Of a stretch of 64,000 nt of DNA, positions 2,583-58,815 are shown one piece after another (position 1 is the stretch's first letter; every line of letters begins with the position of its first letter). The stretch is from a virus: positions 41,997 to 105,996 of the IMG/VR virus record IMGVR_UViG_3300048838_000238, one strand, 5' to 3'. Both the position numbers and the translations under genes were made by a program. The notes below the pieces were generated by a model. That model made no database searches and was not told where the DNA came from. It saw nothing but the letters and a program-made list of their open reading frames with translations.

Positions 2583-5500
2583 CTAGCCGCGAACGTGACG
2601 CTTGTTCGCGCCACCCAGCACGCCGAACCGCGTCGTGTTGTACCACTGGATCGCGAACTCTCCGTCTTCCTGGGTCAGCGTCGTAATGCGATCCTGCAAG
2701 TCGATGATTTCCACCGAGTCGCCGTAGGCCACGATCGGCGCGGACACCAATCGCTCTGCGATTTGAGTGGTGAAGTCAAGCTGCGCGGCGCGTGCAAGTT
2801 GCACCGATCCGACTCGCCCCCACGTCCCCGCCGATGAGTAGGCGGTGTACCCGGTGGAGTCCAAACCGATCAGTTGGAACGAGTAATCGTCCACAACCTG
2901 AATCGTGAATTCGCGCTGATTGACCTCCAGCATTCCAGCGACTTCGGCGATGCGGATACTGTGACCGTTTGACAATCCGTGCGGCACGAAGGCCCGCGCC
3001 GAATCGCCTACCGGATCAGTCGAGACAGTTCCGCCGTTGCGCCGCGCCCGGACGAAGTACAGATCGGCGGAGCTGTTGACTGATGTTTTCTTCCAATCCA
3101 GACCAGGTGCTGTCCAAGTGACATCGTACGAAGACGTGCCGGCCTTGAAGGCGGTGGTCCCATCCGAGATCCCCGCCAGCGCCACCCACTCGTCTCCGTC
3201 CCAGTATTCCCACGTCACGGTATAAGTGCCTGCGCCAGCCGTGCCTAAGTCGATAGCCAGCTTGCCGAATCGCTGTGCAAGGCCGAAGTAACAGGCATCG
3301 TCCGCGCCGACGCCAGCCGGGAAGATATCCCAGTCTCCAGTGCCAGCGTCGTTCGCGTCCGTCGTTTCGGTGACAAACGATTCGCCGCTGCTGTCCTCTT
3401 GCAGCACGATCGCGAGTTGGCTGGAGTAGCTTGTGACCACCGCCGGGCTGGCCTGAGTAATGCCCGAGATCGACCCGTATTGACCAAGTATTCCGGTCGT
3501 TTGCGCGAAGATCACGCCCGCCGTCGCGTCGATCGTGGTTACTTCCTTTGTGCCTTTCAGTAGCGTATCGCCGCCGTGGTTGTTCAGGGTGCCGAGACTG
3601 GCCGCGCAGATCAGCGCCCCGCCAGTCTTGTAGACCTCGTCAATTTCCGCATCGGCTCCGACCGTGACTTCCGCATCGGAACTGACGCTGCTTTGATAAC
3701 TCATCCACAGTTGCGAGACCGTGGCTACCTGCCCGTAGAAGTAGCCGAGACCGAGTTTGCCGCGCTGAATGCGAATGACGTTATCGGGGTGAGTGCCGCG
3801 CCAGTTAATGGCCGGCACGGAGCCGTCAACCGATGTCGAACTGGTATACACGTCGATCACGGTTTCGCGCTTGCCAGTATTGATCCTCGTCAAGCCCGAT
3901 CCAGACCCGCTACCTTCGCCGATTTCGATGATGAGCTGACCATCGTCCGCGCCGTCGCCGAGAACCAACTCGGTCGGTCGGTATTCGTAGTACAGTCCGG
4001 TATGCTGCTTGAGCCCGACCTCCCCGGTGTAGGTTGACTTTTGGATGTACTTCGCTGGCGGCGCTGCCGAGAAGTCGATGCCGTAGAGCAGCGACACGGT
4101 GGAGTTTTCCAGAAGCATCGTTTCGCCGGTTGTCGGGGCGTGACCGAGCGTCCAGTTTGCGGCTTCAGTGCCCCAGTTCGGACCTGTCGGCGACTGGGAA
4201 GTAGTCTGCGTGATTTCAGAAGCGCTCGCGCCGGTCAGCAATTCTCCATCGCCGGTGATGGCTTCGACGTTCGTCGCGGCAAGCGCCGATCCGAACGTGA
4301 CCACCACGGGCAAAGTCGGCAGCGGACCTCCCGTGCAAGTCACGTCGCCAGCGCCGATATTGCTCAAGGCTTCCAAGGCTGAATCGACAGCGGCGGCCGT
4401 GGCGTTGTAGGCGATCACGGAAGTGGTCTGTCCTGAATACGACAGCGTGAACGTGCCAGCATCTGGCGTTTTGTCGAAGGCAATCGATTGGATTTCATTG
4501 ACCGGCGCGATACCGCCTTGAAGAGTCGAGACTGCCACGGTAGCGCCGGTGAGATTACTGCCATCTCCGGTCATCAGAACTACGTCGGTCAGCGCATAAG
4601 CGCCGGTGAACTCGACCAGCCAAGGCCCGCCGTTCGGACCTGTTACTGAGATGTCTCCTGGGACCGGTGTGGTGAGCGCCTCCAAGGCGAGTTGCACGTC
4701 CACCGCTGCCGCATCGAAAGCGATCGCGGCGGTTGTTTCGGAGTCAAAGGTGAGCGTAAACGTCCCGGCTTCAGGAGTTCCGTCGAAGCTCACTTGCTGG
4801 ATTTCATTTTGTCCTTTGGAGTAAATGAAGAACGCTCCCGCGCTTGCGACAGAGTTCGCGCCGCTCTCGTCGTAGTCCTGAGCCGGCGCGCCAATCGCTA
4901 CCACGGTCCCTGTGATTGCCACAGATAGTCCGAACTGGTCTCCAGCAACCCTTCCATTTGTGCCGCTGCCGACCAACTTATCGGCGAGACTCCAAGTCGT
5001 GCCACTGCGAGTGAAAGTGTACGCCGCTCCGGCGCCGCTCAGCAGGTTTGCCCCGGCAGCATCATAATCCTGGCCGAACGCTCCGACGATCGCCATGTCT
5101 CCTTCTACGGCCACTGAAATCCCAAAAACGTCCGCAGCGAGCCTACCATTCGTGCCGCTGCCAACGAGTTTTTGTTCGAGCGCCCAAGTCGATCCTGTTC
5201 TCAGGTACACGTATGCCGCGCCTGCTTCAGTCAGGGCATTAGCGCCTGCTTCGTCATATTGCTGCCGAGGGGCACCGACGATAGCCGTGTCGCCATCGAT
5301 CGCTACGCTTTCTCCGAACCTATCCCCTGCCACACGTCCGTTCGTGCCGCTGCCGACGATCTTTTGCTGAAGCGCCCAAGTCGAGCCGGTACGAAGATAC
5401 ACATAGGCAGCGCCAGCGTTACTGGCAAGATTAGCGCCGGAGGCGTCATAATCCTGGAATGGTGCCCCGACGATGATGGTGTCGCCTGAGATCGCTACTC

Positions 5501-7091
5501 TAAATCCGAAAACGTCTCCAGCGATCCGTCCGTTCGTGCCGCTGCCGACCAGTTTTTGTTGCAGCGTCCACGTCGATCCGGTGCGAGTAAATACAAAAGC
5601 CGCGCCGGCATCCGTCAAGGCGGTCGCGCCGGATGCGTCATAGTCCTGCCTTTGCGCGCCGACCACAATCGTGTCGCCAGAGATCGCCACCGACCACCCA
5701 AAGAAGTCGCCGCTCTGACGCCCGTTGGTGCCACTTCCTACGAGCTTTTGCTGCTTGGTCCATGTCGCTCCGCTGCGAGTGAATACATACACAGCCCCCG
5801 CATTGGCGAGAGAATCTTCGCCATCGGCGTCTAAATCTCCGTTGTACGCGCCAACGACCGCCGTGTCGCCGTCCACAGCGACCGCGAATCCGAAAGAATC
5901 GCTCGATTCGTCACTAACAAGTCGGTCCTGGTAAGCCCATGTCGATCCCTTTAAGAACACCACCGCCTCGTTGTCACCTCCAGCGACCGCAGTGTCGTCG
6001 TCAATGTCGACGCCCGTGCCAAGTTGATCAGAGGCAGTCCTGTGCGGCGACGGCGCTACCAGCTTTTGTAAGTACCCAAGAGGCAGCGCTTCTTGAGTAG
6101 TCTCGATCTCAACGTCATATCCGCCGACGGTTAGACTTGCGCCGTCTCCGGTCATGGCCGCGACATTGGTTTCGGCCAACGCTTCCACAAACTCAACTGT
6201 CCAAGGTCCGCCGTCGGAGCCGGTGACTGTCACGTCAGACGCTACGCCGGCCGTCGTCGTACTGGGAACGACCGTTCCGCCTGTCGCATTGGAGTTATCG
6301 ACCGTGACTTGCGTGCGGTTGGCGCGACCGAGGGACTTCTTGAAGGTGATTGTGATGGGGGTCGTATTTAGCGGTCCTCCGGCGCAGACGGCCTCATCGA
6401 CTCCGATATTGCTCAGCGCTTCGAGTGCTGTTTCAAGGTTAGCGGCCGTCACATCGAAGGCGATCGTCGCGGCGGTCTGCCCCTCAAACGTCAAGTCAAA
6501 TGTTCCTCCGGACGCGGTAGACGTCAGCGTCTGAACTTCGTTTGTGCCAGCGATATTCGATAGATCACACAGCGCATCGCGAACATCGTAGGCAGTAGCG
6601 TCATAGGCGATGGCCGCTGTGACCTGTCCGTCGAATGTCAGTGCGAACGTGCCGCCTACCGCATCTGTATCCACGTCGATGTACTGAATCTCATTCTGCC
6701 CGGCCACGCCTTGCTGAGTGACTGTGACGACGACAGTCGCGACGATCGCATTGGACAGAGTCGCCGTGAAGGGTTTGCCGTCGTCCGGCCCGGTCAAAAG
6801 AATCGCCTCGATACCGTCGTCCCCGTCGTCGGATTCGTAGGTCATCTCGTTGAATTCGGCGATGTCTTCCGCGCCAGCGACCAGCGCCGCCAGCAGATTC
6901 GTCATGGCGACTTGGTCGGTTGTCAGACTGGGCGCCGCGTCGATGTCGTCCTGCGTCAGCGTATAGGTGACGTCCTTGCGGTTGACGGTCGCGGTCCAGG
7001 TTTCGCCGACTTCCGCATCGACGATTACCCAGCGTTCGATTTGAGCCTTGGCCTGCGCGTCGCCGCGAAAACTGTTAATTACTTCGGGCAT
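2583..7091 (-). CDS. Giant FG-GAP beta-propeller virion protein, candidate adhesin
   Basis: A 1502-residue protein. Roughly residues 130-330 and 770-960 hold several copies of an 80-residue beta module (NEIQ...GTFxLTFxGQTxAxIAxxxTA...LEALSNIG). Between them, about residues 340-770, are some seven tandem FG-GAP/integrin-alpha-type blades with cores such as DxFGxSVAIxGDTAIVGA and linkers KLVGSGTNGR, which together should close a seven-bladed propeller. The C-terminal third is a separate beta-rich region. FG-GAP propellers usually mediate protein or glycan binding, so receptor binding or head/tail decoration is plausible. The start MPEVINSF lies 38 bp below a palindromic promoter-like element. 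The Asp-rich blade loops suggest calcium binding (inference). Confidence 0.7.
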   Translation of the reverse strand: MPEVINSFRGDAQAKAQIERWVIVDAEVGETWTATVNRKDVTYTLTQDDIDAAPSLTTDQVAMTNLLAALVAGAEDIAEFNEMTYESDDGDDGIEAILLTGPDDGKPFTATLSNAIVATVVVTVTQQGVAGQNEIQYIDVDTDAVGGTFALTFDGQVTAAIAYDATAYDVRDALCDLSNIAGTNEVQTLTSTASGGTFDLTFEGQTAATIAFDVTAANLETALEALSNIGVDEAVCAGGPLNTTPITITFKKSLGRANRTQVTVDNSNATGGTVVPSTTTAGVASDVTVTGSDGGPWTVEFVEALAETNVAAMTGDGASLTVGGYDVEIETTQEALPLGYLQKLVAPSPHRTASDQLGTGVDIDDDTAVAGGDNEAVVFLKGSTWAYQDRLVSDESSDSFGFAVAVDGDTAVVGAYNGDLDADGEDSLANAGAVYVFTRSGATWTKQQKLVGSGTNGRQSGDFFGWSVAISGDTIVVGAQRQDYDASGATALTDAGAAFVFTRTGSTWTLQQKLVGSGTNGRIAGDVFGFRVAISGDTIIVGAPFQDYDASGANLASNAGAAYVYLRTGSTWALQQKIVGSGTNGRVAGDRFGESVAIDGDTAIVGAPRQQYDEAGANALTEAGAAYVYLRTGSTWALEQKLVGSGTNGRLAADVFGISVAVEGDMAIVGAFGQDYDAAGANLLSGAGAAYTFTRSGTTWSLADKLVGSGTNGRVAGDQFGLSVAITGTVVAIGAPAQDYDESGANSVASAGAFFIYSKGQNEIQQVSFDGTPEAGTFTLTFDSETTAAIAFDAAAVDVQLALEALTTPVPGDISVTGPNGGPWLVEFTGAYALTDVVLMTGDGSNLTGATVAVSTLQGGIAPVNEIQSIAFDKTPDAGTFTLSYSGQTTSVIAYNATAAAVDSALEALSNIGAGDVTCTGGPLPTLPVVVTFGSALAATNVEAITGDGELLTGASASEITQTTSQSPTGPNWGTEAANWTLGHAPTTGETMLLENSTVSLLYGIDFSAAPPAKYIQKSTYTGEVGLKQHTGLYYEYRPTELVLGDGADDGQLIIEIGEGSGSGSGLTRINTGKRETVIDVYTSSTSVDGSVPAINWRGTHPDNVIRIQRGKLGLGYFYGQVATVSQLWMSYQSSVSSDAEVTVGADAEIDEVYKTGGALICAASLGTLNNHGGDTLLKGTKEVTTIDATAGVIFAQTTGILGQYGSISGITQASPAVVTSYSSQLAIVLQEDSSGESFVTETTDANDAGTGDWDIFPAGVGADDACYFGLAQRFGKLAIDLGTAGAGTYTVTWEYWDGDEWVALAGISDGTTAFKAGTSSYDVTWTAPGLDWKKTSVNSSADLYFVRARRNGGTVSTDPVGDSARAFVPHGLSNGHSIRIAEVAGMLEVNQREFTIQVVDDYSFQLIGLDSTGYTAYSSAGTWGRVGSVQLARAAQLDFTTQIAERLVSAPIVAYGDSVEIIDLQDRITTLTQEDGEFAIQWYNTTRFGVLGGANKRHVRG

Positions 7092-12705: not shown

Positions 12706-12751
12706 CTGATATCAGGATCTTGGTCGGAATTAGCGGTTCTTTCCAGTGACT

Positions 12752-12763
12752 GAACACTCGTTC
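12752..12763. promoter_or_regulatory. LexA-box-like dyad upstream of the SHD1 gene
   Basis: GAAC-ACTC-GTTC, inside the longer perfect arms TGAAC/GTTCA (12751-12764). It matches the GAAC-N4-GTTC form of LexA sites in Gram-positive bacteria. It lies about 70 bp upstream of the forward gene and 28 bp before a possible extended -10 (TGCTATCAT, 12788-12796). Confidence 0.35.
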
Positions 12764-12832
12764 ATCTACATTCAGACCACCCACTTTTGCTATCATCACG
12801 AAAGATACAGACGAACTCTACGGGAGACGAAC

Positions 12833-13774
12833 ATGAGACACCTTCATTTCCTGATAGTGACCGCGATTGCCGCGTCCGCGTTCGGTCAGGGGCTATCTCC
12901 AACAGACGCATATGTTGAAGCGCACCACCGGCACTACGAGGCGCGGCGTGCAGAACTCATAGAAAAGCTGGCCGAAGCGACCGCCGAATACCAGCCGATT
13001 CGCGATGCCAAAGTTGATCGCCGCGCGGAGTCGCTGGCTGCCTTGACGGTAACTTTCGGAGAAGGTGCCGACGCCGTCCAGTGGTTTGAAGACGAAAATG
13101 ATGCCGTCTACTTTAGAACAGCTCGCGAGAAACGCTCTGTCACCGAAAGGTACGAACGACTCTACATTGATCCACGAAAAAAGGAACTTGCCGACTTGCC
13201 ATTGACGTACACAGACGAGCGTCCGTCGATGCCGTTTTCTGGCTCGCACCCAGGAATCATCCGGTGGAAGCCTTACGTATTCCAGGTAATCGACGACGAC
13301 GAAGTGCTTTTGCGAGTCTTCAAGGACACCATTTTGTACTTCAAAGGCGTAGCGACTGAAGGCATGGTTGACGGCGAGTACATCAACTTAGATGGAGCGT
13401 ATCACAGTACCGGCACAACAACCTACCAGACTGCCTCCGGTGGATCGAAGACTGTCCGTGTGATCGAGCCGTTCGATACGTCCTCGGCTGATGCCATTAT
13501 CTCAGAAAAACACGTTGAATTCTTGGACCGTCTAACCGCCGAGATGAAGAAATTAACCGCCGCAAATAAGAAGGAGACGGCAGACATTCGCGAATCCCTT
13601 ACCCGCGAATTCACCGACATCACCGGCACATTCAAAGTGAAAGCCGAATACGCCGGGTACGCTAGCGGAAACGTCCGTCTCAAAAAAGAGAACGGCGAAA
13701 CCATTAGCGTTCCACTGGCAAAGCTGTCGGATACCGACAGACGGTGGGTCGCTGAACAAACCGCGAGGGATTAA
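12833..13774 (+). CDS. Secreted SHD1-domain protein (forward-strand accessory gene)
   Basis: 313 residues starting MRHLHFLIVTAIAASAFGQG at 12833 behind GGGAGA. The N-terminus is a Sec signal peptide with a likely cut after AFG/QG. The middle is a charged helical region. The last 55 residues (GTFKVKAEYAGYASGNVRLKKENGE, then VPLAKLSDTDRRWV) match the SHD1 (SLA1 homology domain 1) fold, a family very common in exported planctomycete proteins. It is one of only two genes on the plus strand. Its TAA overlaps the TAA of the convergent tape-measure gene, which suggests acquisition as a host-derived moron. Possible roles are periplasmic superinfection exclusion or host modification (inference). Confidence 0.75.
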   Translation: MRHLHFLIVTAIAASAFGQGLSPTDAYVEAHHRHYEARRAELIEKLAEATAEYQPIRDAKVDRRAESLAALTVTFGEGADAVQWFEDENDAVYFRTAREKRSVTERYERLYIDPRKKELADLPLTYTDERPSMPFSGSHPGIIRWKPYVFQVIDDDEVLLRVFKDTILYFKGVATEGMVDGEYINLDGAYHSTGTTTYQTASGGSKTVRVIEPFDTSSADAIISEKHVEFLDRLTAEMKKLTAANKKETADIRESLTREFTDITGTFKVKAEYAGYASGNVRLKKENGETISVPLAKLSDTDRRWVAEQTARD

Positions 13775-22754: not shown

Positions 22755-23471
22755 CTAGAAGATGCCGCGCGGCATTTGGGCCTGAAACCGCAGCATGATC
22801 GTCGAAATATCAAACAGCTCCGAGAAACCGGACGGAATAACCGGCGGACCTGGATCGACGAAGATATCAATGACCTCGGGCACGCCCGCAAACGGCGCGT
22901 TTTCCGAGAGAGCTTGCGTAATCTGTTGCCGCCAGCCAAGTTCGCCGCGCAGATTCAGCGTCTGATCTGCATCGCTGGCGCGAAGTAAGGAGAGTTGAAC
23001 TCCGTAGTTGATCTCATCCCGCTCGTTATCCAAAGAGTCCCGTGTCTCGCGGATCGGCGTCACGAAGATGGCTAGCGATAAGTCGCGCCGATTCCACGGC
23101 AGTTTCTGCATGATGATATTGGCGGACGGAACATCCGTGAGGCTCATCGCTTGCAGAAATTCAACCACCGCTTCGCAGCAGCGGTAATGAATCGGGTCCA
23201 CTCCGCTTGAAGCGCGGAAGCCGGTGAAGATTACTGAGATGTCAGCGCCTAACTTGCTGACCAGAACTGCGCAGTACAAGCCATTGTCCACATCCAGCGC
23301 GACAGTGCCGTCGCCAGTCCGATTCCCGGAACTGGACCCATCCGCAGGAACGAGCCCGGAACTCCATGGCGCGGTGTAGATTGTGTTCGTTGAAGCCGGA
23401 TCGCTGCCGCTGATCGTCGCTGTCGCGCCCGTCCCGGCTAGGTTATCGGCGATTGAAATAGCAAGAGGCAT
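22755..23471 (-). CDS. Tail terminator-like protein with N-terminal beta domain
   Basis: 238 residues. Residues 1-90 are beta-rich with Thr/Ser-Gly repeats (GSDPASTNTIYTAPW) and look like a decoration or Ig-type domain. Residues 95-238 have the alpha/beta pattern of tail terminator proteins (CCEAVVEFLQAM, then LPWNRRDLSLAIFVTP, then EINYGVQLSLLRA). Position between the tail completion gene and the tail tube fits a terminator. Moderate confidence. Confidence 0.5.
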   Translation of the reverse strand: MPLAISIADNLAGTGATATISGSDPASTNTIYTAPWSSGLVPADGSSSGNRTGDGTVALDVDNGLYCAVLVSKLGADISVIFTGFRASSGVDPIHYRCCEAVVEFLQAMSLTDVPSANIIMQKLPWNRRDLSLAIFVTPIRETRDSLDNERDEINYGVQLSLLRASDADQTLNLRGELGWRQQITQALSENAPFAGVPEVIDIFVDPGPPVIPSGFSELFDISTIMLRFQAQMPRGIF

Positions 23472-23494: not shown

Positions 23495-23929
23495 TTACTG
23501 TCCGAAGGCGTTTTCGATGGCTGCGGACTTCAGTATCTCACCGCACTCTTCCACGATAGCCTCGGTGGCGTAGATGTAGGTGCGAGGCGGGATTGGTCCG
23601 CGACCGTATTGCTGTGTCGCGGCATACGGGATCTCGCCGCCGTTCACCCCTAGCGATGCTTCGCGATCGGCGGTGACAGCGATATTCCCCATCGCGCCAA
23701 GCTGAGTCGTGGCATTCAGCATGTCCTCTGAAAGTCGCAAGAGCGGATGCGGTAGGTTGTCCTTGCGTTGCGGCCACGGTGACCCGTCTGGGTACGACGC
23801 ACTCATGAAGTTGTCGTAGAAGCCTCGCCGCAGAACTTCACCGGCCTGCCCTAGCGGTTCTTGGAATGATCCTGATTCGAAGTAGGCATCGGCGTCGTCC
23901 AGAAGCTCAACGAATTCTTCCGGGCTCAT
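23495..23929 (-). CDS. Tail completion / virion morphogenesis protein
   Basis: 144 residues with the layout of the Mu gpG-like virion morphogenesis family: an N-terminal helical region, then YPDGSPWPQRKDNLPHPLLRLSEDML, then a VTADREASLGVNGGEIPYAATQQYG segment and PPRTYI. Such proteins act in head-tail joining. The ATG at 23929 overlaps the stop of the upstream membrane-protein gene. Confidence 0.6.
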   Translation of the reverse strand: MSPEEFVELLDDADAYFESGSFQEPLGQAGEVLRRGFYDNFMSASYPDGSPWPQRKDNLPHPLLRLSEDMLNATTQLGAMGNIAVTADREASLGVNGGEIPYAATQQYGRGPIPPRTYIYATEAIVEECGEILKSAAIENAFGQ

Positions 23930-24147
23930 GAGTCATTCCGAACTTGAATGAGGGAGTAAATCACGACGATGAGTGACAGCGGGCCAAGGATCAGGAATGA
24001 AAACGCGATCAGCGCCGACTCAGCCCAATACTTTTGAATTTGCCGGAATACGTCGGAGGTTCCGTCCGAAATCATGCAAGCGATCATTAGGACGATCGAG
24101 GCGAGCAGGCCACACGCGAGCCACGCAGCGAACAGGATAAGGATCAT
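23926..24147 (-). CDS. Small two-segment membrane protein
   Basis: 73 residues with two hydrophobic stretches: LFAAWLACGLLASIVLMIACM near the N-terminus and LIAFSFLILGPLSLIVVIYSL near the C-terminus. The topology is holin-like or spanin-like, but there is no specific motif. It overlaps the tail completion gene by 4 bp. Confidence 0.55.
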   Translation of the reverse strand: MILILFAAWLACGLLASIVLMIACMISDGTSDVFRQIQKYWAESALIAFSFLILGPLSLIVVIYSLIQVRNDS

Positions 24148-24151
24148 ATGC

Positions 24152-24529
24152 TCACGCTTTCAATTGGACCTGAATGATCTCTGTCGCGCCGGCGGCTTGA
24201 TTGCTCAAGATGCCGATCTCGTGCGCACCAGCGAGCGCCGCTGGAATTGGATACGACTTACCGGCCGATACTGTGCGAGTGACCGCGACCGGAGGTTCCG
24301 CATCCGTGTACGCTGGCGCGAGCAATCCGCCCTCCCACGAAGACGAGTAAAACGTCAATAGCGTCCCAAGGAATCCGGCCGGAAGCGTGATATTGCCGAC
24401 ATCGAATCCCTTAAAAACAAACTTCCCGGTGGTTGCCGCATCATTGGAGAGCGGCAGCTTAAACTGACGCGACGCTCCACTCCTGGAGATAAAAGCACTC
24501 TTTTCGTCAGTTGGGACGGCGTTGGCCAT
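24152..24529 (-). CDS. Small virion-module protein, possible decoration protein
   Basis: 125 residues starting MANAVPTDEKSAFISRSG at 24529; the longer frame to 24634 overlaps a membrane-protein gene and has no supporting signal. It is beta-rich, with GKFVFKGFDVGNITLPAGF and VTRTVSAGKSYPIPAALA. It resembles a small capsid- or tail-decorating domain. No family was assigned. Confidence 0.55.
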   Translation of the reverse strand: MANAVPTDEKSAFISRSGASRQFKLPLSNDAATTGKFVFKGFDVGNITLPAGFLGTLLTFYSSSWEGGLLAPAYTDAEPPVAVTRTVSAGKSYPIPAALAGAHEIGILSNQAAGATEIIQVQLKA

Positions 24530-24534
24530 TGCGG

Positions 24535-24750
24535 TTACTTTCTCTTGGACCAGTTTGTAAAAAACATCGCGAAGTACAGTGTCACGACTCCGCCAAATAC
24601 CGACACGGCGAAAAACGGCAGCGTGAACCACCACTCCTTAACCGAGTGGCGGATCGTGTTTGTCAGTCCGTCTGCGATGACTGTGCTGCCTGCGAATACA
24701 CACCAGCCAACGAAGCCCGCCAAGAACCAACTCAGGATGATCTCAAGCAT
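24535..24750 (-). CDS. Small membrane protein, holin candidate
   Basis: 71 residues with two predicted membrane segments (LEIILSWFLAGFVGWCVFAG and WFTLPFFAVSVFGGVVTLYF) and a positively charged C-terminus (NWSKRK). It is directly downstream of the CAP-domain gene, with their ends touching at 24750. Confidence 0.55.
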   Translation of the reverse strand: MLEIILSWFLAGFVGWCVFAGSTVIADGLTNTIRHSVKEWWFTLPFFAVSVFGGVVTLYFAMFFTNWSKRK

Positions 24751-25310
24751 TACGCGCCCTCAGAAAAATCAGGGCAGCATCCTGCCTCATCACCTTGATT
24801 TCCACTAGCCGAACCGCGACTTCCGAATGTCACGCACCAGTAGATTGCGCCGTTCGATCCAGTTGCGTAGCCGACTCCTATTTCGTGATACGCGGTGTTT
24901 TTGATGTTACGTCGATGACCGGTGGAGTTCATCCAAACACGCATGACATGCTCGGGAGACTTCTGCCCGTACGCGACGTTTTCGCCGTAGGTATTCCAGT
25001 CGTACCCTGCCAGTTTGATCCTCGCGCCGGGACTACTGAATCCTTCCCCGCGATGCGACATTGTTCGCTTCGATGCCATCCAGTCGGCGTGCTTCTGCGC
25101 GGCCTTCGTCAACAGAGCATTAAGAGCAAGAGGCGATGTTGGATCGCGGTTGGCGTTGTGGATTCTCAGTATCTCGGCAACGTACGGCGGCGCTGTTGGC
25201 GTCGTTGGATATGGCAGAATCGACGGTTTAGGAGGAACCGGCTTAGCTGGCTGCGCGGGCCTCCACCACGGTGAAATAAGTTCCAAAAACAGTGCAATTA
25301 GATTTGTCAT
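24750..25310 (-). CDS. CAP (SCP/PR-1) domain protein
   Basis: 186 residues starting MTNLIALFLELISPWWRP at 25310, overlapping the stop of the holin-like gene (TGATG). A hydrophobic N-terminal stretch and a Pro-rich linker precede a CAP domain: ILRIHNANRDPTSPLALN, KHADWMASKRTMSHRG, YGENVAYG, then WMNSTGHRRNIKN and IGVGYATGSNGAIYWCVTFG. These carry the typical conserved His/Glu positions. CAP domains in bacteria are extracellular, some with peptidase or binding activity. Its place between small membrane proteins suggests a lysis or envelope role, but this is not shown. Confidence 0.75.
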   Translation of the reverse strand: MTNLIALFLELISPWWRPAQPAKPVPPKPSILPYPTTPTAPPYVAEILRIHNANRDPTSPLALNALLTKAAQKHADWMASKRTMSHRGEGFSSPGARIKLAGYDWNTYGENVAYGQKSPEHVMRVWMNSTGHRRNIKNTAYHEIGVGYATGSNGAIYWCVTFGSRGSASGNQGDEAGCCPDFSEGA

Positions 25311-25552
25311 CAGAACACCCTGCCTGTTATCGCCGCGAAGACTTCCACAGCATTCAAGACCAAGAATAAAGACGCTTGCCACTTCTCCCGAGAGTACAGC
25401 CACGCGCCCGCCAAGCCACCGACGTACAAGTGTGCCACGTCCTTGTAGACGTCCAGCCAGATACTGTCAGGCTCGACTAAGTCGCCGATCATCAACCGGA
25501 CAATCGCCAAGGCAATGCCGAACGCGATTACTGAGTCACGAGTACCTGTCAT
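25310..25552 (-). CDS. Holin-like small membrane protein
   Basis: 80 residues with three weak or two strong hydrophobic segments (VIAFGIALAIVRLMIGDLV, VAHLYVGGLAGAWLY, LFLVLNAVEVFAAI). It precedes the CAP-domain gene by a TGATG overlap. A holin or anchor role is a positional guess. Confidence 0.5.
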   Translation of the reverse strand: MTGTRDSVIAFGIALAIVRLMIGDLVEPDSIWLDVYKDVAHLYVGGLAGAWLYSREKWQASLFLVLNAVEVFAAITGRVF

Positions 25553-26013
25553 GGCTTAAGACTCGCGATGCCGCCGCTAACAATCACCGTCACGGGAACA
25601 TTGATCCCACGCACTCCCATCGGGGAAGTCGCCTGGATCGGCCCGCTCGGAATTTCAAACACGACGCTGTAGCCAGATTGTTTGCCGGGATACTCGCCGT
25701 CCTCAAGGTGCGTCGGCTTGAGAAACGTCAATTGAATCCGCGACGTTTCGTGGCAGGTTTTTGCCGCCTGCGTTTTTGTTCCCAACTCGAACGTGCGACC
25801 GTTCGGACACACCACGATCGTCTTGACGACTTGCCGAACTTGCACGTCTCCGTGATCCTCGGCGCTCACGATCTGCCGGCGGCAATTAGGGCACTCCGCG
25901 CCCTCGGAAATCTCGCCAGACAGACACTTCCCGTCGCGGTAGCAGCGATAGAACTTATTGCCGTCCAGCGTGAAGAACTCACCAGTGCAAATCGTTCCGT
26001 GTGAGATTGCCAT
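25549..26013 (-). CDS. Unknown virion-module protein with zinc knuckle
   Basis: 154 residues. Residues 8-45 contain CTGEFF...CYRDGKC...CPNCRRQ, a possible zinc ribbon. The C-terminal half is beta-rich (IQLTFLKPTHLEDGEYPGK, VPVTVIVSGG). It overlaps the downstream membrane-protein gene by 4 bp. No family was recognised. Confidence 0.55.
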   Translation of the reverse strand: MAISHGTICTGEFFTLDGNKFYRCYRDGKCLSGEISEGAECPNCRRQIVSAEDHGDVQVRQVVKTIVVCPNGRTFELGTKTQAAKTCHETSRIQLTFLKPTHLEDGEYPGKQSGYSVVFEIPSGPIQATSPMGVRGINVPVTVIVSGGIASLKP

Positions 26014-26051: not shown

Positions 26052-26390
26052 TTAGAGTCGGCCACGCTTACATTGGCAGTGCCATTGCGTGTCCCATAAC
26101 TCCAGCGTAGCGGATACGATCAGCCAACTTTCGCCGTCGACTGCGAATCGCTCATCGCGCAACGGCTCGTGATCGCCCAGGAACTCCGCCCACAGCACCC
26201 ACGTCGCGTTAGTCGACTTCACCGACACGTTCTCGCCGACTTCGCTCCGGGCGCGCGCCGGCAATTCCTTTTTGGCTTTCACGCCCGTGATAGTGGACCC
26301 ATCCGCCTTGGTGTAAGTAACGGCCACGACGCCGTCGTGATACTGCCAATCGTTCTTATACAGTTCGTAGGCGGCGGATCTTGTGGTCAT
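26052..26390 (-). CDS. Small connector-region protein
   Basis: 112 residues, beta-rich (YHDGVVAVTYTKADGSTITGV, FAVDGESWLIVSATLELWD). It begins within the head-tail connector block and could be a head-closure or tail-completion subunit by position. No specific match was recognised. Confidence 0.55.
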   Translation of the reverse strand: MTTRSAAYELYKNDWQYHDGVVAVTYTKADGSTITGVKAKKELPARARSEVGENVSVKSTNATWVLWAEFLGDHEPLRDERFAVDGESWLIVSATLELWDTQWHCQCKRGRL

Positions 26391-28975: not shown

Positions 28976-30250
28976 TTAGTTGGTGCTGCGAACGACCCCA
29001 CGAGGATCTTTCACGGAGTATGCGTGCATCTGATCGACGAACAGAGCCAGCAGAATCTTGTGATTCAGCATGGTGTAGTCGTTCGGGGCAGCACGTTGAA
29101 CCGTGAACGGCCAGTTCTCGACTCGGCTGAACGCCTTGCGAGTGTTGATCGCCCACCAGTATGCGAGAGCGTTGGTCGTCGACACGGCCAATCCTCGATC
29201 CGCCACCGCGTCCGTCAGGATTTGATCCATGATCGGAGACGACAGAATCTCCTTGTTGGTGATGCTGGTGTTCGCACCGCGTCGGATCGCCGTGCTGGAC
29301 TGAGTTCGCGTTTCGATCTCCGAAGCGCCCTTGATCTGAGCCGCAGTCTCGTGCTTGTCGTTATGCACAAGCATCACGTCCCAGTCGGTCGCGATCCGCT
29401 CGCCGGTTTCCTGGTCGGTCATGCGGGAGAACAGCAAGTTCGTCGCATTGACGTCCTCCCAGTCGGTCAGCGGGTTGGAGTGGGTATTCACCCAGAACCC
29501 GCCCGAGGCGACGTAAGTTTGGTAGGCCACCCCGCCGTAGTTGTACGGGTTGTCAACGCCTGCGATCAGACGCAGTCCGTCCTTCTCCTTGCGGAGACCC
29601 ATGACTTCGCCGATCTTGTTGGCGTGAGCCAGCACTTGTCCGGTCTGGTCGAACTGGACCGTCTCGAACGTCACCTCCATGCGGAGGCCGTCTTGGTAGG
29701 TTTCGGGAGTCAGCGTGTAGCGTTCGGTGAACTGCATCGCGGCATGTTCTTCACCGGGATTGCGCCGCACGGCCTGATCGCCCAATCCGCCGAGACCCAT
29801 GTACTTCTTCTGCCGCACGTTCGGAGTCGGATCAACCGGGATCAACCGATCAGTGATGAAGTCCGGCCGCTCGTAGTCTTGGAGCAACGCCGCGTCCAAG
29901 AGTCCGCTAACGGACCCCAGGAAGGCCGATACGTTCGGCAAGTCCGAAGGCAGCACGGCTTCCGCCCCACCGGCTTCGTAGACTTGATAGGAGTTCGCGG
30001 TCGAGCGCGACAAACCTTCAGCCCATTGCGGGCCGATGAACGTATCGGCCAAGCCCCGGATGGAGAAGTCTTGCGGCCGCATGTAGTTCGGCCCGGTTTC
30101 CAACACGGCCATGCCGTGCTTGTTGACCTTGATACCGAGGTCTTCATGGAACTTCCGCAAGAAGGCATTCGTGCCTGCGATCCGTTCGCCTTGACTGGCG
30201 TGCGAAGGCGCGAATTGCTCAAGCACGTTACGGAGGGCTTTGTAGTCCAT
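28976..30250 (-). CDS. Major capsid protein (HK97-type fold, inferred)
   Basis: 424 residues, start MDYKALRNVLEQFA at 30250. An N-terminal helical region is followed by a P-domain-like beta/alpha body (FITDRLIPVDPTPNVRQKKYMGLGG, then FTERYTLTPETYQDGLRMEVTFE) and a long helix region (DAVADRGLAVSTTNALAYWWA). The C-terminus ends in NHKILLALFVDQMHAYSVKDP. Size, position after protease and decoration-like genes, and a terminator on its 3' side fit the major capsid protein. The fold is inferred. Confidence 0.75.
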   Translation of the reverse strand: MDYKALRNVLEQFAPSHASQGERIAGTNAFLRKFHEDLGIKVNKHGMAVLETGPNYMRPQDFSIRGLADTFIGPQWAEGLSRSTANSYQVYEAGGAEAVLPSDLPNVSAFLGSVSGLLDAALLQDYERPDFITDRLIPVDPTPNVRQKKYMGLGGLGDQAVRRNPGEEHAAMQFTERYTLTPETYQDGLRMEVTFETVQFDQTGQVLAHANKIGEVMGLRKEKDGLRLIAGVDNPYNYGGVAYQTYVASGGFWVNTHSNPLTDWEDVNATNLLFSRMTDQETGERIATDWDVMLVHNDKHETAAQIKGASEIETRTQSSTAIRRGANTSITNKEILSSPIMDQILTDAVADRGLAVSTTNALAYWWAINTRKAFSRVENWPFTVQRAAPNDYTMLNHKILLALFVDQMHAYSVKDPRGVVRSTN

Positions 30251-40135: not shown

Positions 40136-43100
40136 TTACGGGTAAGACTCGACGATCCGGTTGGCAGGCTGCTGCTTGAGAAGCTGAAGAAACGCCTTGG
40201 CTTCATCGGATAGCTCAGCGCCGGTATCGCTGTCGCCGCATCCCTTGCACTCGGCAACTAGGTCGGAAGCCGACTCCGCACCTGCCTGCGGCGATCCCGC
40301 ACCTGCCTGCGGTTTGACCGCACCCGAGTGCCGTCCGGTCATTACCCAGTCGCGGAACTCGTCGATGTGCATGGCGCGGATCGGCCCAACCTTCCAGCCA
40401 GCGTCATAGCTTCCAAGGTACGCGCCGACGGCCCCGAGCTTGCTATTGAAGCCAAGGAACGCCTTGTGCTCGTCGAACTCTCCGGTCTGCTGATCGATCT
40501 GATCCATGACGAAGACAAGTTCGCTGTCTGCGTTCGGCCCGAGAAACACGTCCACGTAGTCTCCGTCAGCGCCGGCGAGCCCGATGACTTCCCCGTAGTG
40601 CGCGGCCATCGTGTTCGCCCACGGCTTGCCGTCCGCGCCGACGCCACGACGCACCGAGCCCTTTGGATTCTCGATCAGGATCGTCAGCCCGTGGAACTGG
40701 ACAGCATGTTTCGGCAAGAGTTCAGGCGGTGTCTGCTCGCGGATCATCTGAGATTGCACCATCTCGGTAACTAGCAGCTCAATCTGCTGTCGCGACATAA
40801 CCGGCCCCACGCCCTCCGGTGCGCCCAACTCCTTGCTGATACTCGGGAGGTCAGACATACCGGCGGCTGGCGCTGCGGTCTTAGGGTCGCGGATACCGGC
40901 TGGCGGTTGCCCGACCGGCGGCTGCTCGCCTGGCGGTTGTCCATGTGGCTTGCCGGTAGCCGCGTCGCGCTCCGCCTCTTCCTGGATATGCTTGTCCTCG
41001 ACTTCACCGTCTAGTTCAGCTTGCGCCTGCCACGTCTTGCGGCTGAGTACCTTAGCGGCTTGGCGGATTTGCCGGATCTGCTCTTCCTCCAGCTTGTTCC
41101 TCTCGTTGATCGGCGGCGCTTCGATCTGCAAGTCGATCGTCCGCTTGAACTCGCGCCATGATTTCTGGCCGGGCGCGAATCCGAACCGCTCGAACCGCCC
41201 GGCGTGGTAGTTAAACAGCAAGACTTTCCAGAAGATTTGGCGGTAATACTGTTTGCGCATTCCTTGCTCGGATCGGCAACTAACGTGAAATCGAGAACCA
41301 GCGACAATACCAGACGCCATGTTGTTATTCGAATCGTCGCCGGAAATTTGTCCTTCCGACATGCAATTTCCAGATACGGCAACGGTCCCGTGCCTGCGAG
41401 TAACCATCGTTCCATTCGGAACCGAGACGCACCACACCTTGCCGACGTACTCGCTAATCTGGACGTTGTCGATCGGCGTAAATCCAACACGATCTGCGAG
41501 TCTGAACCTCACCCTCCATTGAGAGCCCTGTCGTCCCCGAACGGTGGCGACGTATCCGCAACGTACTGCAATCTCCTGGACGTCGTCGGCGAGCTGACGG
41601 CTTGCGGTGTGGTACTCCATAACATTGGCCGTTGCGTTACCTCCGTCGCCTTGCCATAGAGCATGTAGAAGCACCTCTAATAGCTCTGGAACCAGCATCT
41701 TGAATTGGCTAGGGATTCTCTTGTTGCGCGACCCCTCTCCGCAATTCTCGCGAAGCCACAGGCATAGCGACTTGTTCAATACTTCCCATTGGTAAAAATC
41801 CGCAGTCATCTCAGTTTCGCCGATTGGACTTACCCGCTTTGTTCCGGCCGGCGTAATCGATTCAAAAACCTTGTGCCCCAGTAGGTGAATCGACGACTTG
41901 ATATCTTCAAATGCCTCGTTGCCGATTCCCTGGCAAAGGCCAACGCGGTAATTGGCTTGCTCTTTCTGAATTGTTGTCCATCCTTCCGACAGAAAGTGGC
42001 CAATGAATTTAATGAACGGAATGGCATCAAAGCACTGGTCTTGATACTGACTCGCGTTCTCTCGGCGATATGTTTTATTGGAGACGATCTGCCTCACAGC
42101 TCCGGGAGTTACAGAAAACTCGCGTGCTGTCCCGGCGATTGAACTCCCAGACGAAACCAGTTCTCGAATACTTTCCGCCTTCTTGAAGTTAAGTCGCCCC
42201 CTTCCGTCGACGCTTGGTATCGTGATGCTTTCAGGCTTCCAGCCCTCTTCGCAAGCCATCGCAGTAGGAATAGCGTATTGTCGATGGCGATTCCCTTCGA
42301 CAAGATCCCACGCCGGATAGAACCTCCCGACGTCGAATACACGATCACGGCCCCGTGGCGTCAGCAAATACATGCGATGGTCTGGAGTTACCATCATGTC
42401 GACTTTCGCGTTCTTGACACGGACCATCGGCCCCGCGTAGTCGTAAATATGGATCTTCGTAGGTGCCTGGAATTCAAGTTTTCCAGTCTTTTGATTCATC
42501 GTTCCGATGCGATCATCGCTTGAAAGCTTGTCATATTCCTTCCACCCACTATCCGTTAAGCACTCCGTATCCGTATCGTGGCACCATCGCACAGCCACTT
42601 GCCGCAAGATCCCCTGGACAACGTCCAAGAATGCAGAGCCGCGTTCATGGCCGGTCGGACCCGGTTGGTATTCCATCCCCTCCGAGATGTGCTTATGCGT
42701 CCCTGGTGGGTGGTGGCGCTTCGAGACTTCGCGGGTGCCGTTCTGGCCATAGACGTTTTGCTCGTAATCCGCGTTGTTGCGGACCATCGATTCGACTTGG
42801 TCTTTACTGGTGCCCTTGACGTGCTGAATGATGTAGGCGATCGCGGCCTGCTCGGCTGCCGCTTCCCCTGTGTTTTCCAGGATGCGCGATTGCTGGAGAA
42901 TCCACTTCCACACGGGGTAGAAGTCTGTCATCCCACGCTTCACGTTCTGGAATGAATTGCGCTTGCTGTGCTCGACATAGAGCTTCGGCAAGTAATCCCG
43001 TGTCCCGGTGTCCCATTGAACGCAGTAGCCGATGACATCTACCACGTCGTGATCTGGCGTATGCAGTCCGAACGTGCAATTGTCGGCGTGTTCGCGCACA

Positions 43101-43768
43101 ATGCCGAACTTCTCATAGAGCGTGTCGTCGTCCAGCGGTAGATTACCGGTGTCCGTGACGTACTCGGGTTCGATCACGCGAGCTTTGACGCGCCCCGCTT
43201 GGTTCGGATGCAAGCCCAGGAACGTCTCGCCGTCCGCTAGATCGCGGTTGTAGAGTTCCTTGTCGAGGTTACCTGTGAACTTGTTGTCCTCGTCGAACTC
43301 GTCGATCACGTCTTGGACTTCTTCTAGCAGTCCGTCCGGTGTCTGCTTGCCGCGCCTCGCAATGGCCTTATAGATGTAGCCGTCGCCGATCACGTAGTCC
43401 GTGAGCGTCTTGACGATGCCTACCCCGACGGATTCTGCGGTTGTGACCAGTCGCGCGAAGGCGCGTTGCTGCCGCAGGTCTTCCTCGGTCATCACGAACG
43501 GGGCGTTATTGCCGTCGCGGCGCTCGGTCAGACCGCCCATCGCCAGCCCGCCGCCGCCGAAGCCGCCGTTCGCACCTCCCCAGAAATTCGGCAGCCAATC
43601 CATGCGATTGACGGTCTTGATGGCGCTCTCGGATATGCCGAGTTGCCGTTCCAGACCTTGCTTCTTAACGCTCAGTTCGAGGTCGCGGACTTGCCGCTCC
43701 AGGGTTGCCGAGCCGCCGTTATCCGACCCGCTGGCTGCGCCACCTGACTTTTTCCTACGTCGCGACAT
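40136..43768 (-). CDS. Portal protein with intein and C-terminal InPase domain
   Basis: 1210 residues. The portal body spans residues 1-395 and 802 to about 925, interrupted by an intein (396-801). After a Pro/Gln-rich linker, residues 1018-1145 match the phage InPase (inorganic-pyrophosphatase-like) domain: HGLTILIENPKGSVR, GKPWANTMAAHYGEV, DGDYVDVFLGPNADSE, TGEFDEHKAFLGF. InPase domains occur in phage polyvalent proteins, so fusion to a portal is unusual. After splicing the product would be about 804 residues. The portal forms the dodecameric DNA channel at the head vertex. Position next to terminase supports the call. Confidence 0.8.
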   Translation of the reverse strand: MSRRRKKSGGAASGSDNGGSATLERQVRDLELSVKKQGLERQLGISESAIKTVNRMDWLPNFWGGANGGFGGGGLAMGGLTERRDGNNAPFVMTEEDLRQQRAFARLVTTAESVGVGIVKTLTDYVIGDGYIYKAIARRGKQTPDGLLEEVQDVIDEFDEDNKFTGNLDKELYNRDLADGETFLGLHPNQAGRVKARVIEPEYVTDTGNLPLDDDTLYEKFGIVREHADNCTFGLHTPDHDVVDVIGYCVQWDTGTRDYLPKLYVEHSKRNSFQNVKRGMTDFYPVWKWILQQSRILENTGEAAAEQAAIAYIIQHVKGTSKDQVESMVRNNADYEQNVYGQNGTREVSKRHHPPGTHKHISEGMEYQPGPTGHERGSAFLDVVQGILRQVAVRWCHDTDTECLTDSGWKEYDKLSSDDRIGTMNQKTGKLEFQAPTKIHIYDYAGPMVRVKNAKVDMMVTPDHRMYLLTPRGRDRVFDVGRFYPAWDLVEGNRHRQYAIPTAMACEEGWKPESITIPSVDGRGRLNFKKAESIRELVSSGSSIAGTAREFSVTPGAVRQIVSNKTYRRENASQYQDQCFDAIPFIKFIGHFLSEGWTTIQKEQANYRVGLCQGIGNEAFEDIKSSIHLLGHKVFESITPAGTKRVSPIGETEMTADFYQWEVLNKSLCLWLRENCGEGSRNKRIPSQFKMLVPELLEVLLHALWQGDGGNATANVMEYHTASRQLADDVQEIAVRCGYVATVRGRQGSQWRVRFRLADRVGFTPIDNVQISEYVGKVWCVSVPNGTMVTRRHGTVAVSGNCMSEGQISGDDSNNNMASGIVAGSRFHVSCRSEQGMRKQYYRQIFWKVLLFNYHAGRFERFGFAPGQKSWREFKRTIDLQIEAPPINERNKLEEEQIRQIRQAAKVLSRKTWQAQAELDGEVEDKHIQEEAERDAATGKPHGQPPGEQPPVGQPPAGIRDPKTAAPAAGMSDLPSISKELGAPEGVGPVMSRQQIELLVTEMVQSQMIREQTPPELLPKHAVQFHGLTILIENPKGSVRRGVGADGKPWANTMAAHYGEVIGLAGADGDYVDVFLGPNADSELVFVMDQIDQQTGEFDEHKAFLGFNSKLGAVGAYLGSYDAGWKVGPIRAMHIDEFRDWVMTGRHSGAVKPQAGAGSPQAGAESASDLVAECKGCGDSDTGAELSDEAKAFLQLLKQQPANRIVESYP
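41366..42583 (-). mobile_element. LAGLIDADG-type intein in the portal gene
   Basis: 406 codons. N-terminal splice block CHDTDTECLTDSGW with Cys1; block B-like VDMMVTPDHRMY; endonuclease motifs FIGHFLSEGW and LLHALWQGDGG resemble paired LAGLIDADG helices; C-terminal block VSVPNGTMVTRRHGTVAVSGN with Cys+1. The penultimate residue is Gly, not the usual His, but His is present shortly before. Flanking portal sequence joins as QVAVRW-CMSEGQ. Confidence 0.85.
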
Positions 43769-47629: not shown

Positions 47630-48391
47630 TTAAACAGCCGAGACTCGCCCCTTACCTGCTTGTGCCAGCAGCCTGTTAATCACGTCTTGGTAGTATTCTT
47701 TTTCCCACTCGGCGCGGCCTCCGCCGGCGCCGTGGGTGTCTCCGATCTCGGCCACCCGCAGTCTTTCTCGTGGCCAACGGCCGCCTCCCAGCATCGCATA
47801 AGCAGGGTGAATAGGCAGGTCGTGGATGGCTAGATATCCGAATACATCGGCCGTGTTCCATCGTCCAATCGGCGAGCAGCCTTTAGGGCTGTTCAGTCCC
47901 CAGCGTAGCATCCGAATCCTCCTGCCGCTTGACTCATCTGCGCGGATACCAAGGATGTGCCGTCCGCTGTATGGCTTCTCGAATCTCCGAATCTCCGCGT
48001 ACCATATCTTGTCGGTGAGTTTATCGACGTCCTGATGAGGAGCGTTGCGATCGATGCCGACGTAGTCGACGTCAACTTCCTGATACAGTTGCCCAGGGAA
48101 TTGGCTGAAGTAGGCATCGCGAACCGCGTCACAATCCGGGTTATGGTTTGTCGGGCGCAAGTGCATTAACGGGACGTGACGTGCCACTTTCCACAACAGA
48201 TGGGCAATGACAACGCTATCTTTGCCCCACGAAATTCCTGCGTAGCAATGGCCGTCGCCGATGAACTCAGTGATCGCGCCGATGGATTGCCGTTCACGAC
48301 CATCAACCTCTCTAAGACGATCGCTTTCGGCGTATTCTTTCCACAATAGTAGGTCGCCCGGACGATGCCGTTCACTCTGTATCAGCATCAA
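47630..48391 (-). CDS. PAPS reductase-family (CysH-like) PP-loop protein
   Basis: 253 residues. PP-loop SWGKDS at residues 54-59, followed by LMHLRPTNHNPDCDAVRD and a conserved-looking IRADESSGRR...WNTADVFGYLAIHDLPIHPAY segment, as in PAPS reductase/3-mercaptopyruvate-type adenylating enzymes. The usual enzyme activates substrates with ATP or reduces PAPS, but no redox Cys at the normal C-terminal position was seen. It closes the csf/IbrAB unit: its start overlaps the stop of the IbrB-like gene. Confidence 0.75.
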   Translation of the reverse strand: MMLIQSERHRPGDLLLWKEYAESDRLREVDGRERQSIGAITEFIGDGHCYAGISWGKDSVVIAHLLWKVARHVPLMHLRPTNHNPDCDAVRDAYFSQFPGQLYQEVDVDYVGIDRNAPHQDVDKLTDKIWYAEIRRFEKPYSGRHILGIRADESSGRRIRMLRWGLNSPKGCSPIGRWNTADVFGYLAIHDLPIHPAYAMLGGGRWPRERLRVAEIGDTHGAGGGRAEWEKEYYQDVINRLLAQAGKGRVSAV

Positions 48392-54720: not shown

Positions 54721-54748
54721 GACATTGCTCCTTGTTAGCGTGTCGTGT

Positions 54749-56055: not shown

Positions 56056-56088
56056 TGAATTAGCTCCTGATTGCGAGTTGATTTGACC

Positions 56089-56105
56089 TACATCACACTG
56101 ATATA
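56089..56105 (-). promoter_or_regulatory. Palindromic promoter-like element, copy 12, heading the csf unit
   Basis: TACATC-ACACT-GATATA on the plus strand, followed by TGTAATTCGCTGG, which is the GCGAAT box (minus strand) at the standard spacing. It lies 34 bp upstream of the start at 56055 and is the only such element before the CRISPR-associated genes. Confidence 0.6.
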
Positions 56106-56165
56106 TGTAATTCGCTGGCCAGTCAGGATATTGGCCAACCGCTGAAAAGAATCTGGAAAAAGCCG

Positions 56166-57524: not shown

Positions 57525-57527
57525 CGG

Positions 57528-58777: not shown

Positions 58778-58796
58778 TGCGTTCTCTCCGTGTGGT

Positions 58797-58813: not shown

Positions 58814-58815
58814 GG

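What the first reader, a model, noticed from the sequence alone, without database searches (positions are those of the whole stretch)
24535..25552. CAP-domain protein flanked by small membrane proteins
A CAP/SCP domain with hydrophobic N-terminus lies between two holin-like genes and just upstream of tail genes; no standard endolysin was recognised in the window. It may be an unusual lysis or envelope-modifying cassette for a planctomycete cell wall.
Basis: inference. Interest (0 to 1): 0.5.

Follow-up and report, generated by a model that had tools for sequence, protein, structure and literature searches.

The report
CAP gene in phage lysis slot
A virus of planctomycete bacteria carries a CAP-type protein wedged between small membrane proteins at the spot where phage P2 keeps its cell-bursting genes, but a second candidate cassette elsewhere in the same virus means that a role in bursting the host is plausible, not shown.

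Summary
The CAP gene is real (window 24750-25310, minus strand; Pfam CAP E 1.2e-16; the modelled fold matches bacterial SCP/CAP structures, Z 20.6). It overlaps by 1 nt two-segment membrane genes on both sides (80 and 71 aa); a third (73 aa), probably a paralogue of the 71-aa one, follows. The run ends at a P2 gpS homologue, where P2 keeps its holin-endolysin genes. No peptidoglycan-hydrolase family was shown for 137 proteins of the 106-kb record. Prophage relatives point to a planctomycete host. In five prophages the slot is closed; in other relatives it mostly holds no membrane run; in L357, L424 and (with another capsid type) prophage G335 it holds a different membrane or peptidase cassette; CAP in none. 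Verdict: plausible auxiliary envelope/lysis cassette, CAP activity unproven; new variant of a known kind.

The parts
24750..25310 (-). CAP/SCP domain protein, 186 aa: short hydrophobic N-terminus (res. 3-16), Pro-rich linker (17-42), CAP domain (43-166), 20-aa tail
   Evidence: PF00188 E 1.2e-16; AF2 model, VIA Z 20.6 to 4ifa; His86 and Glu110 invariant, His132 at least 90% conserved in 32 sequences
25310..25552 (-). 80-aa membrane protein with two hydrophobic segments, holin-like by position only; overlaps the CAP start by 1 nt
   Evidence: no Pfam or PHROG match at E 0.1
24535..24750 (-). 71-aa membrane protein with two hydrophobic segments; overlaps the CAP stop by 1 nt
   Evidence: similar to the 73-aa protein (local score 50, 1 of 2000 shuffles as high)
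24152..24529 (-). 125-aa protein without family match or membrane segment, in the cassette
23926..24147 (-). 73-aa membrane protein with two hydrophobic segments, likely paralogue of the 71-aa one; overlaps the tail-completion gene by 4 nt
   Evidence: PF07332 E 0.055, below cut-off
23495..23929 (-). tail completion protein, P2 gpS homologue (Phage_tail_S)
   Evidence: PF05069 E 2.7e-6; phrog_26 E 6.6e-12
25549..26013 (-). 154-aa protein, upstream neighbour, 4-nt overlap with the 80-aa gene
   Evidence: no family match
26052..26390 (-). 112-aa protein conserved in relatives; upstream border of the slot
   Evidence: homologues next to the 22755-23471 homologue in planctomycete prophages L202-L205, L207
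22755..23471 (-). 238-aa protein conserved in relatives; downstream border of the slot
   Evidence: homologues in L198, L202-L205, L207
21303..22208 (-). tail tube protein
   Evidence: PF18906 E 1.3e-13
28976..30250 (-). major capsid protein, used to find relatives
   Evidence: relatives in 26 of 392 genomes and in L357 (E 4.9e-108); a Phage_capsid_4 match is among the families of alignment A2, which holds this protein, but one search does not name the member

Best explanation
The genes from 26013 down to 23926 form an accessory late cassette in the head-tail slot of a planctomycete tailed phage. It is translated with the virion genes. The CAP protein (no clear signal peptide) is made late and reaches or crosses the inner membrane with help of the coupled two-span proteins; there its CAP domain acts on an envelope component (wall-associated or surface protein, lipid or peptidoglycan) and helps to open the envelope for phage release. 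It is auxiliary: the main envelope-opening activity is more likely the papain-like peptidase cassette elsewhere in the genome. Shown: gene order, overlaps, fold, position, absence of a recognised PG hydrolase among the proteins scanned. Inferred: late timing, export route, target, role in release.
For: Overlaps of 4, 1 and 1 nt chain the 154-aa, 80-aa, CAP and 71-aa genes, and 4 nt link the 73-aa gene to the gpS homologue. In P2 the annotated order is adaptor L-X-holin Y-endolysin K (1-nt overlap with Y)-lysA-lysB-lysC-R-S. Three of the record's four small two-segment membrane genes lie here. The border genes are adjacent (100 nt or less) or overlapping in prophages L202-L205 and L207, so the cassette is extra. 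Relatives that do fill the slot with membrane genes: L357 (capsid E 4.9e-108), six small genes with membrane segments among the 15 sense genes after the capsid gene; L424, secreted protein + papain-like peptidase + membrane gene; prophage G335, which shares the tube family but has a GP7-type capsid, membrane gene + papain-like + secreted gene between capsid and tube. No PG-hydrolase family shown for 137 proteins.
Against: CAP domains are not established peptidoglycan hydrolases. No clear signal peptide. Stills and Bo-Finn have CAP genes apart from annotated lysis genes. CAP: 0 of 20 relatives downstream of the capsid gene and over the cut-off in 0 of 28 related records, one weak match below it. 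19 of those 20 relatives show 0-2 small membrane genes there (gene calling drops small overlapping genes, so a lower bound), and several have soluble-type genes in the slot, so the slot is not a dedicated lysis place. In L420 and L422 the L424-type peptidase lies upstream of the capsid gene, not in the slot. A rival cassette exists in the same record. CAP genes in other viral contigs are only mildly enriched for small membrane neighbours (31 of 59 against 70 of 204 control genes, p 0.015, not dereplicated). A cultured planctomycete phage is reported to be released without host lysis (PMC10945688, passages), so a lysis module cannot be taken for granted.
Confidence: 0.38

Rival explanations
1. 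Secreted or surface-held host-modifying factor (moron): the CAP domain alters the host surface, for example for superinfection exclusion, as the plasmid protein PrgA does with its protease-like CAP domain; the membrane proteins anchor or export it.
For: Several phage CAP genes lie, by my reading of their neighbours, in settings unlike a lysis module: L017, L020, Stahl, Bo-Finn. PrgA gives surface exclusion and its protease domain likely cleaves PrgB (passages of PMC10588982); PrgA CAP structures match the model at Z about 10.
Against: Here the gene overlaps its neighbours inside the structural run, unlike a moron with its own promoter. PrgA has a long stalk and wall anchor; this protein has 186 aa and neither.
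Confidence: 0.3
2. The lysis function of this phage lies in the papain-like (C1) peptidase cassette at record 3.2-7.4 kb (outside the window); the CAP cassette has another role or none. (Not exclusive of the best explanation, in which CAP is auxiliary.)
For: The record ORF 4508-6550 carries, after an intein, a C-terminal part homologous to the papain-like peptidase of L424 (phmmer E 3.5e-15), among secreted and membrane ORFs; one neighbour has a homologue two genes after the peptidase in L300 (E 2e-4), another has homologues in 15 of 80 viral peptidase loci (E 7e-8 to 2e-3; partly near-identical contigs). The related peptidase family: Gln, Cys and His in 55 of 55 sequences; papain/procathepsin fold, Z 22.4; small membrane or secreted neighbours in 54 of 69 loci against 40 of 259 control genes; in 10 of 392 genomes, 8 of which carry this capsid type.
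Against: No activity known; C1 peptidases cut protein, not peptidoglycan. The record's ORF is a non-member by the main family profile (E 2.7 whole, 0.38 for the C-terminal piece); the link runs through L424 (profile comparison E 5.7e-6, probability 85.5%). Asp stands where papain has Asn. The family was found in only 4 of 28 related records, many of them fragments, and not in L424's own record at that threshold.
Confidence: 0.35
3. The CAP protein is a virion or tail-assembly component or an entry factor.
For: It lies among head-tail and tail-completion genes.
Against: The slot is closed in prophages that keep the border genes, so assembly does not need it there; membrane genes on both sides.
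Confidence: 0.1

Closest known systems
Phage P2 lysis cassette (Y-K-lysA-lysB-lysC between X and R-S)
   Same: Position before the gpS-type tail completion gene, a small gene overlapping the next by 1 nt, further small genes after it
   Different: P2 K is an annotated endolysin; here the middle gene is a CAP protein without known PG-hydrolase activity; relation of the membrane genes to Y or lysA-C was not tested pairwise, only by family profiles without a match
Phage CAP/YkwD-like proteins (Bacillus phages Stills, Stahl, Slash; Butyrivibrio phages Bo-Finn, Arian; phrog_16914)
   Same: Same domain, 37-39% identity
   Different: Stahl's is annotated as LysM/SCP and Bo-Finn's looks alike by eye; this one has a Pro-rich linker, no LysM, and sits among structural genes
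Bacterial SCP/CAP proteins 4ifa (B. anthracis) and BB0689 (4d53)
   Same: Fold, Z 20.6 and 19.7
   Different: Cellular proteins; I know of no proven enzymatic activity (recalled)
PrgA CAP domain (conjugative plasmid pCF10)
   Same: CAP fold (Z about 10) on a mobile element
   Different: Long stalk and wall anchor; surface exclusion, not lysis
Papain-like (C1) membrane cassettes of planctomycete phages (this work)
   Same: Membrane-flanked cassette; in L424 and G335 in the same head-tail slot
   Different: Unrelated enzyme fold

Membership tests
CAP/SCP superfamily (PF00188) | Profile match over the curated cut-off | tested here: met
   62.1 bits against 21.1
CAP/SCP superfamily (PF00188) | alpha-beta-alpha CAP fold | tested here: met
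   AF2 model and VIA Z 20.6
CAP/SCP superfamily (PF00188) | Conserved His/Glu of the central cavity | tested here: inconclusive
   His86 and Glu110 invariant, His132 at least 90% in 32 sequences; that these line the cavity is recalled, geometry not measured
CAP/SCP superfamily (PF00188) | Secretion signal, usual in the family (recalled) | tested here: inconclusive
   19-residue hydropathy never above 0.82, no positive n-region; no signal-peptide predictor at hand
P2-type lysis cassette | Position between head-tail adaptor and gpR/gpS | tested here: met
   which window gene is the adaptor was not established
P2-type lysis cassette | Endolysin with a known PG-hydrolase domain | tested here: not met
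   Only CAP found in the cassette; no hydrolase family shown for 137 proteins of the record
P2-type lysis cassette | Holin activity of the small membrane gene | not testable with these tools
   two hydrophobic segments; no family match
Known holin families | Pfam or PHROG holin profile over threshold | tested here: inconclusive
   best PF07332 E 0.055 for the 73-aa protein, below cut-off; none for the other two
PrgA-type surface exclusion protein | Long stalk and wall anchor beside the CAP domain | tested here: not met
   186 aa: short N-terminus, linker, CAP domain, 20-aa tail
Papain-like (C1) planctomycete phage cassette | Papain-like peptidase gene in the cassette | tested here: not met
   none among the cassette genes; the record's papain-like ORF lies outside the window at record 4508-6550

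The most novel reading that the evidence does not exclude
Some planctomycete tailed phages have replaced peptidoglycan-hydrolase endolysins by exchangeable attackers of envelope proteins (papain-like C1 peptidases, and in this phage also a CAP protein) carried with small membrane proteins in cassettes that move into and out of one head-tail slot; the CAP protein is a release effector of a new enzyme class.
Probability: 0.2. Interest if true: 0.8.

Novelty: new variant of a known kind. Interest (0 to 1): 0.5.

Why it matters
How phages leave planctomycetes is little described. In my three searches (9 papers listed; 12 of 2,520 listed; 6 listed) I saw one paper on a planctomycete phage's exit, which reports release without lysis (PMC10945688, passages); I saw none, by title or abstract start, on a lysis enzyme of such phages. 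This work gives two cheap-to-test candidates (CAP cassette; papain-like cassette) and a genome slot where cassettes are exchanged. If a CAP protein or a C1 peptidase opened cells, it would add an enzyme class to phage release and give an assayable activity to bacterial CAP proteins.

Tried and rejected
Endolysin labels that do not hold: phrog_938 'endolysin' (6.7e-26) falls on residues 1023-1166 of the portal-like ORF 40136-43768, together with head-protein and DarB-like labels; an InPase match (PF18823) is, member not named, and its identity with this region is my inference. phrog_2252 'endolysin; inhibits RNA polymerase' (2.1e-16) falls on the same residues of record ORF 1497-2081 as a dATP/dGTP pyrophosphohydrolase profile.

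Limits of the endolysin search: of the ORFs I scanned 133 of 142 minus-strand and 1 of 15 plus-strand ones, plus 3 others, 137 in all; itself left out ORFs under 60 aa and those cut by stretch borders. In one search only 25 of 31 matched families were shown (weakest shown E 2.4e-5), so a weaker hit may be hidden; only 25 of 56.

Searches that led nowhere: exact-peptide scans with the tail tube and capsid proteins; tblastn of both against cultured phages, no match; Phage_tail_S in 8 CAP-bearing viral records, 0 of 8; capsid protein in 6 CAP-bearing viral records, 0 of 6; scans with the intein ORF (none, the records shown cover the intein part, residues 63-483, 0 of 10 records, no positive control); PDB search with two L357 cassette proteins: hits that do not fit, or none. 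My by-eye reading of L357 13649-14272 as papain-like was not confirmed. My by-eye reading of the intein ORF failed against the main peptidase profile and against L357 and was rescued only through L424. A weak CAP match in the record of L411 (G425, E 2.4e-4, below cut-off) was looked at: I recognised no CAP gene among the ORFs listed. Three paper searches on CAP in phages or bacteria gave no test of a CAP protein as a phage lysin in the listings.

Considered and rejected: chance cluster of membrane ORFs (p 0.0069, but 0.057 with the looser rule). CAP as typical of planctomycete prophages: in the rows listed no CAP hit lies on the same contig within 340 kb of a capsid hit (list truncated, many genomes in pieces), and the CAP sequence matched nothing at E < 0.01 in the prophage and peptidase loci.

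Full report
What is there. The record is a 105,996-base IMG/VR virus contig; the window is its bases 41997-105996. I read the other 42 kb too. By my gene calls nearly all genes are on the minus strand. From the capsid gene (30250-28976) the order is 203 aa, 379 aa, 86 aa, 114 aa, 112 aa, 154 aa, 80 aa (two hydrophobic segments), CAP 186 aa, 71 aa (two segments), 125 aa, 73 aa (two segments), Phage_tail_S, 238 aa, 126 aa, tail tube. The CAP gene overlaps its membrane neighbours by 1 nt on each side, the 80-aa gene overlaps the 154-aa gene by 4 nt, and the 73-aa gene overlaps Phage_tail_S by 4 nt. This looks like one translated unit of the structural run, not a free-standing moron.

CAP identity. 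Pfam CAP E 1.2e-16, phrog_16914 E 3e-22. An AlphaFold2 model on 32 sequences has block pLDDT 92-98 over residues 41-160 and superposes on bacterial SCP/CAP proteins at Z 20.6 (4ifa) and 19.7 (BB0689), on GAPR-1 at about 15 and on the CAP domain of PrgA at about 10. His86 and Glu110 are invariant and His132 at least 90% conserved among the 32.

Host and relatives. tblastn of capsid and tube finds nothing in cultured phages. The capsid protein matches 26 of 392 genomes drawn from the phylum of a Planctomycetaceae genome. A prophage in G313 has homologues of the record's terminase, portal, head, capsid, 238-aa, Phage_tail_S, tube and later tail genes in nearly the same order; the portal and head-morphogenesis genes, and Phage_tail_S and the 238-aa gene, are in swapped order. 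The host is therefore very probably a planctomycete.

The slot. In prophages L202-L205 and L207 the genes on either side of the cassette (112-aa and 238-aa homologues) are 100 nt or less apart or overlap: the CAP cassette is extra. Of 46 viral loci with a capsid relative, 45 could be mapped, and 20 have at least 10 sense genes downstream of the capsid gene. Among the next 15 sense genes of these 20, CAP is found in 0, a papain-like hit in 1 (L424, weak, E 5.8e-4), and 0 to 2 small membrane genes in 19; the exception, with 6, is L381, the same contig as L357. My gene calling drops small overlapping genes, as it did in the window, so these are lower bounds; several loci have soluble-type genes in the slot. 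L357 is the nearest relative seen (102-kb contig, capsid E 4.9e-108): the slot holds a run of small membrane and secreted genes. L424 has a secreted protein, a papain-like peptidase and a membrane gene there. Prophage G335 at 2.74 Mb, with a GP7-type capsid but a tube of the same Pfam family, has membrane gene, papain-like, secreted gene between capsid and tube. Against a dedicated slot: in L420 and L422 the L424-type peptidase lies upstream of the capsid gene. Phage P2 has its annotated holin, endolysin and spanin genes at the matching position, with a 1-nt overlap between holin and endolysin. So the slot is mostly without membrane genes, but where it has a run of them it looks like an envelope cassette. 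That is the main argument for an envelope or lysis role of the CAP cassette; it is positional.

A second cassette. No PG-hydrolase family was shown for 137 proteins scanned (10, 45, 55 with 25 of 31 families shown, 27). But record ORF 4508-6550 (outside the window) is a papain-like protein interrupted by an intein (intein matches). Its C-terminal part matches the L424 peptidase at E 3.5e-15, all other ORFs of the record scoring E 4 or worse; the residue after the intein aligns with the Cys of L424's GSCVSF motif, followed by a shared GRSGHSI and by LDSYG in place of VNSWG. Its neighbours are a secreted 159-aa ORF, a membrane 154-aa ORF, a secreted 133-aa ORF, a membrane Pro-rich 163-aa ORF and an HExxH-type 100-aa ORF (secretion and motif by eye). 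The 154-aa membrane ORF has a homologue two genes after the peptidase in L300 (E 2e-4); the HExxH ORF has homologues in 15 of 80 viral peptidase loci.

The main papain-like family, found through G313, is in 10 of 392 planctomycete genomes, 8 of which also carry this capsid type and 5 of which have the two within about 21 kb on one contig (distances from the listed places). But among 28 records with a capsid relative (28 of the 46 loci, many fragments) only 4 matched it. Gln, Cys and His are conserved in 55 of 55 dereplicated sequences, and SWG follows in at least 54 of 55. The model (pLDDT 93.4) matches xylellain at Z 22.4 and procathepsins at 17-20. It has a small membrane or secreted same-strand gene within two genes in 54 of 69 loci, against 40 of 259 control genes (80 loci given, 4 too near an edge and 7 without a gene call dropped; not dereplicated; Fisher p 1e-22). 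For CAP viral loci the figures are 31 of 59 against 70 of 204 (80 given, 13 edge and 8 without a call dropped; p 0.015). The viral structure library holds phage proteins named Peptidase_C1, so the fold in phages is not unknown; a lysis role was not seen in the listing.

Other phage CAP genes. [quoted passage not shown] is unknown', beside separately named endolysins and a holin (PMC4541274, passage). Bo-Finn: CAP (annotated hypothetical) about 16 kb from the annotated endolysin and holin (passages of PMC7372960). PhaLP 2.0: some proteins that its SUBLYME tool predicts as endolysins are annotated as cysteine-rich secretory protein family, which the authors call unrelated annotations (PMC13237592, one passage); this can be read either way. 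In the viral contigs L025, L031 and L065 CAP genes sit beside small membrane genes, in L031 after an Amidase_3 gene. A Rhodobacter YkwD gene is among insertion mutants with raised fatty acid in a paper on envelope-altering mutations (PMC5442454, table passage). A cultured planctomycete (strain ZRK32) is reported to release a phage without lysis (PMC10945688, passages); its phage was not compared here.

Judgement. CAP membership is certain by profile and fold. The lysis-type position is real and has some comparative support. That CAP itself helps to open the envelope is inference (about 0.38), with surface modification (0.3) and 'the papain-like cassette does the lysis' (0.35, not exclusive of the first) as rivals.

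Noticed in passing
record bases 4508-6550 (locus L002, minus strand; outside the window): Intein inserted in a papain-like peptidase directly before its catalytic Cys (by alignment); the L424 homologue has none. Asp replaces the usual Asn of the NSWG motif.
   Followed up: partly
L275-L354, L249, L265-L273: Large phage family of papain-fold (C1) peptidases in membrane/secreted cassettes, in several with a secreted thioredoxin-like gene, in planctomycete prophages and many viral contigs; no Pfam match at E 0.05 for the five members tested.
   Followed up: partly
L202-L205, L207: Planctomycete prophage modules with the same head and tail genes but only about 200-300 aa where the tape measure protein should be; perhaps gene-transfer-agent-like remnants.
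   Followed up: no
40136-43768: Portal-like ORF with a C-terminal domain that PHROG_938 labels endolysin.
   Followed up: partly
12746-13774 (+): Protein with an N-terminal hydrophobic segment and a C-terminal SHD1 domain (PF03983, E 3.3e-15), on the opposite strand to nearly all other genes.
   Followed up: no
47630-59928: Three proteins with a PAPS reductase domain and one with a DUF3440 match among 27 scanned; only the one at 47630-48391 is named there, the places of the others are inferred.
   Followed up: no
63721-64000: 27-base tandem repeat, 10.4 copies, at the very end of the contig, reading as a VPRPTRATE repeat protein; may have stopped the assembly.
   Followed up: partly
L012:5146-7337: Another viral contig with a CAP gene after a 200-aa and a 71-aa ORF, followed by a subtilase (PF00082).
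   Followed up: no
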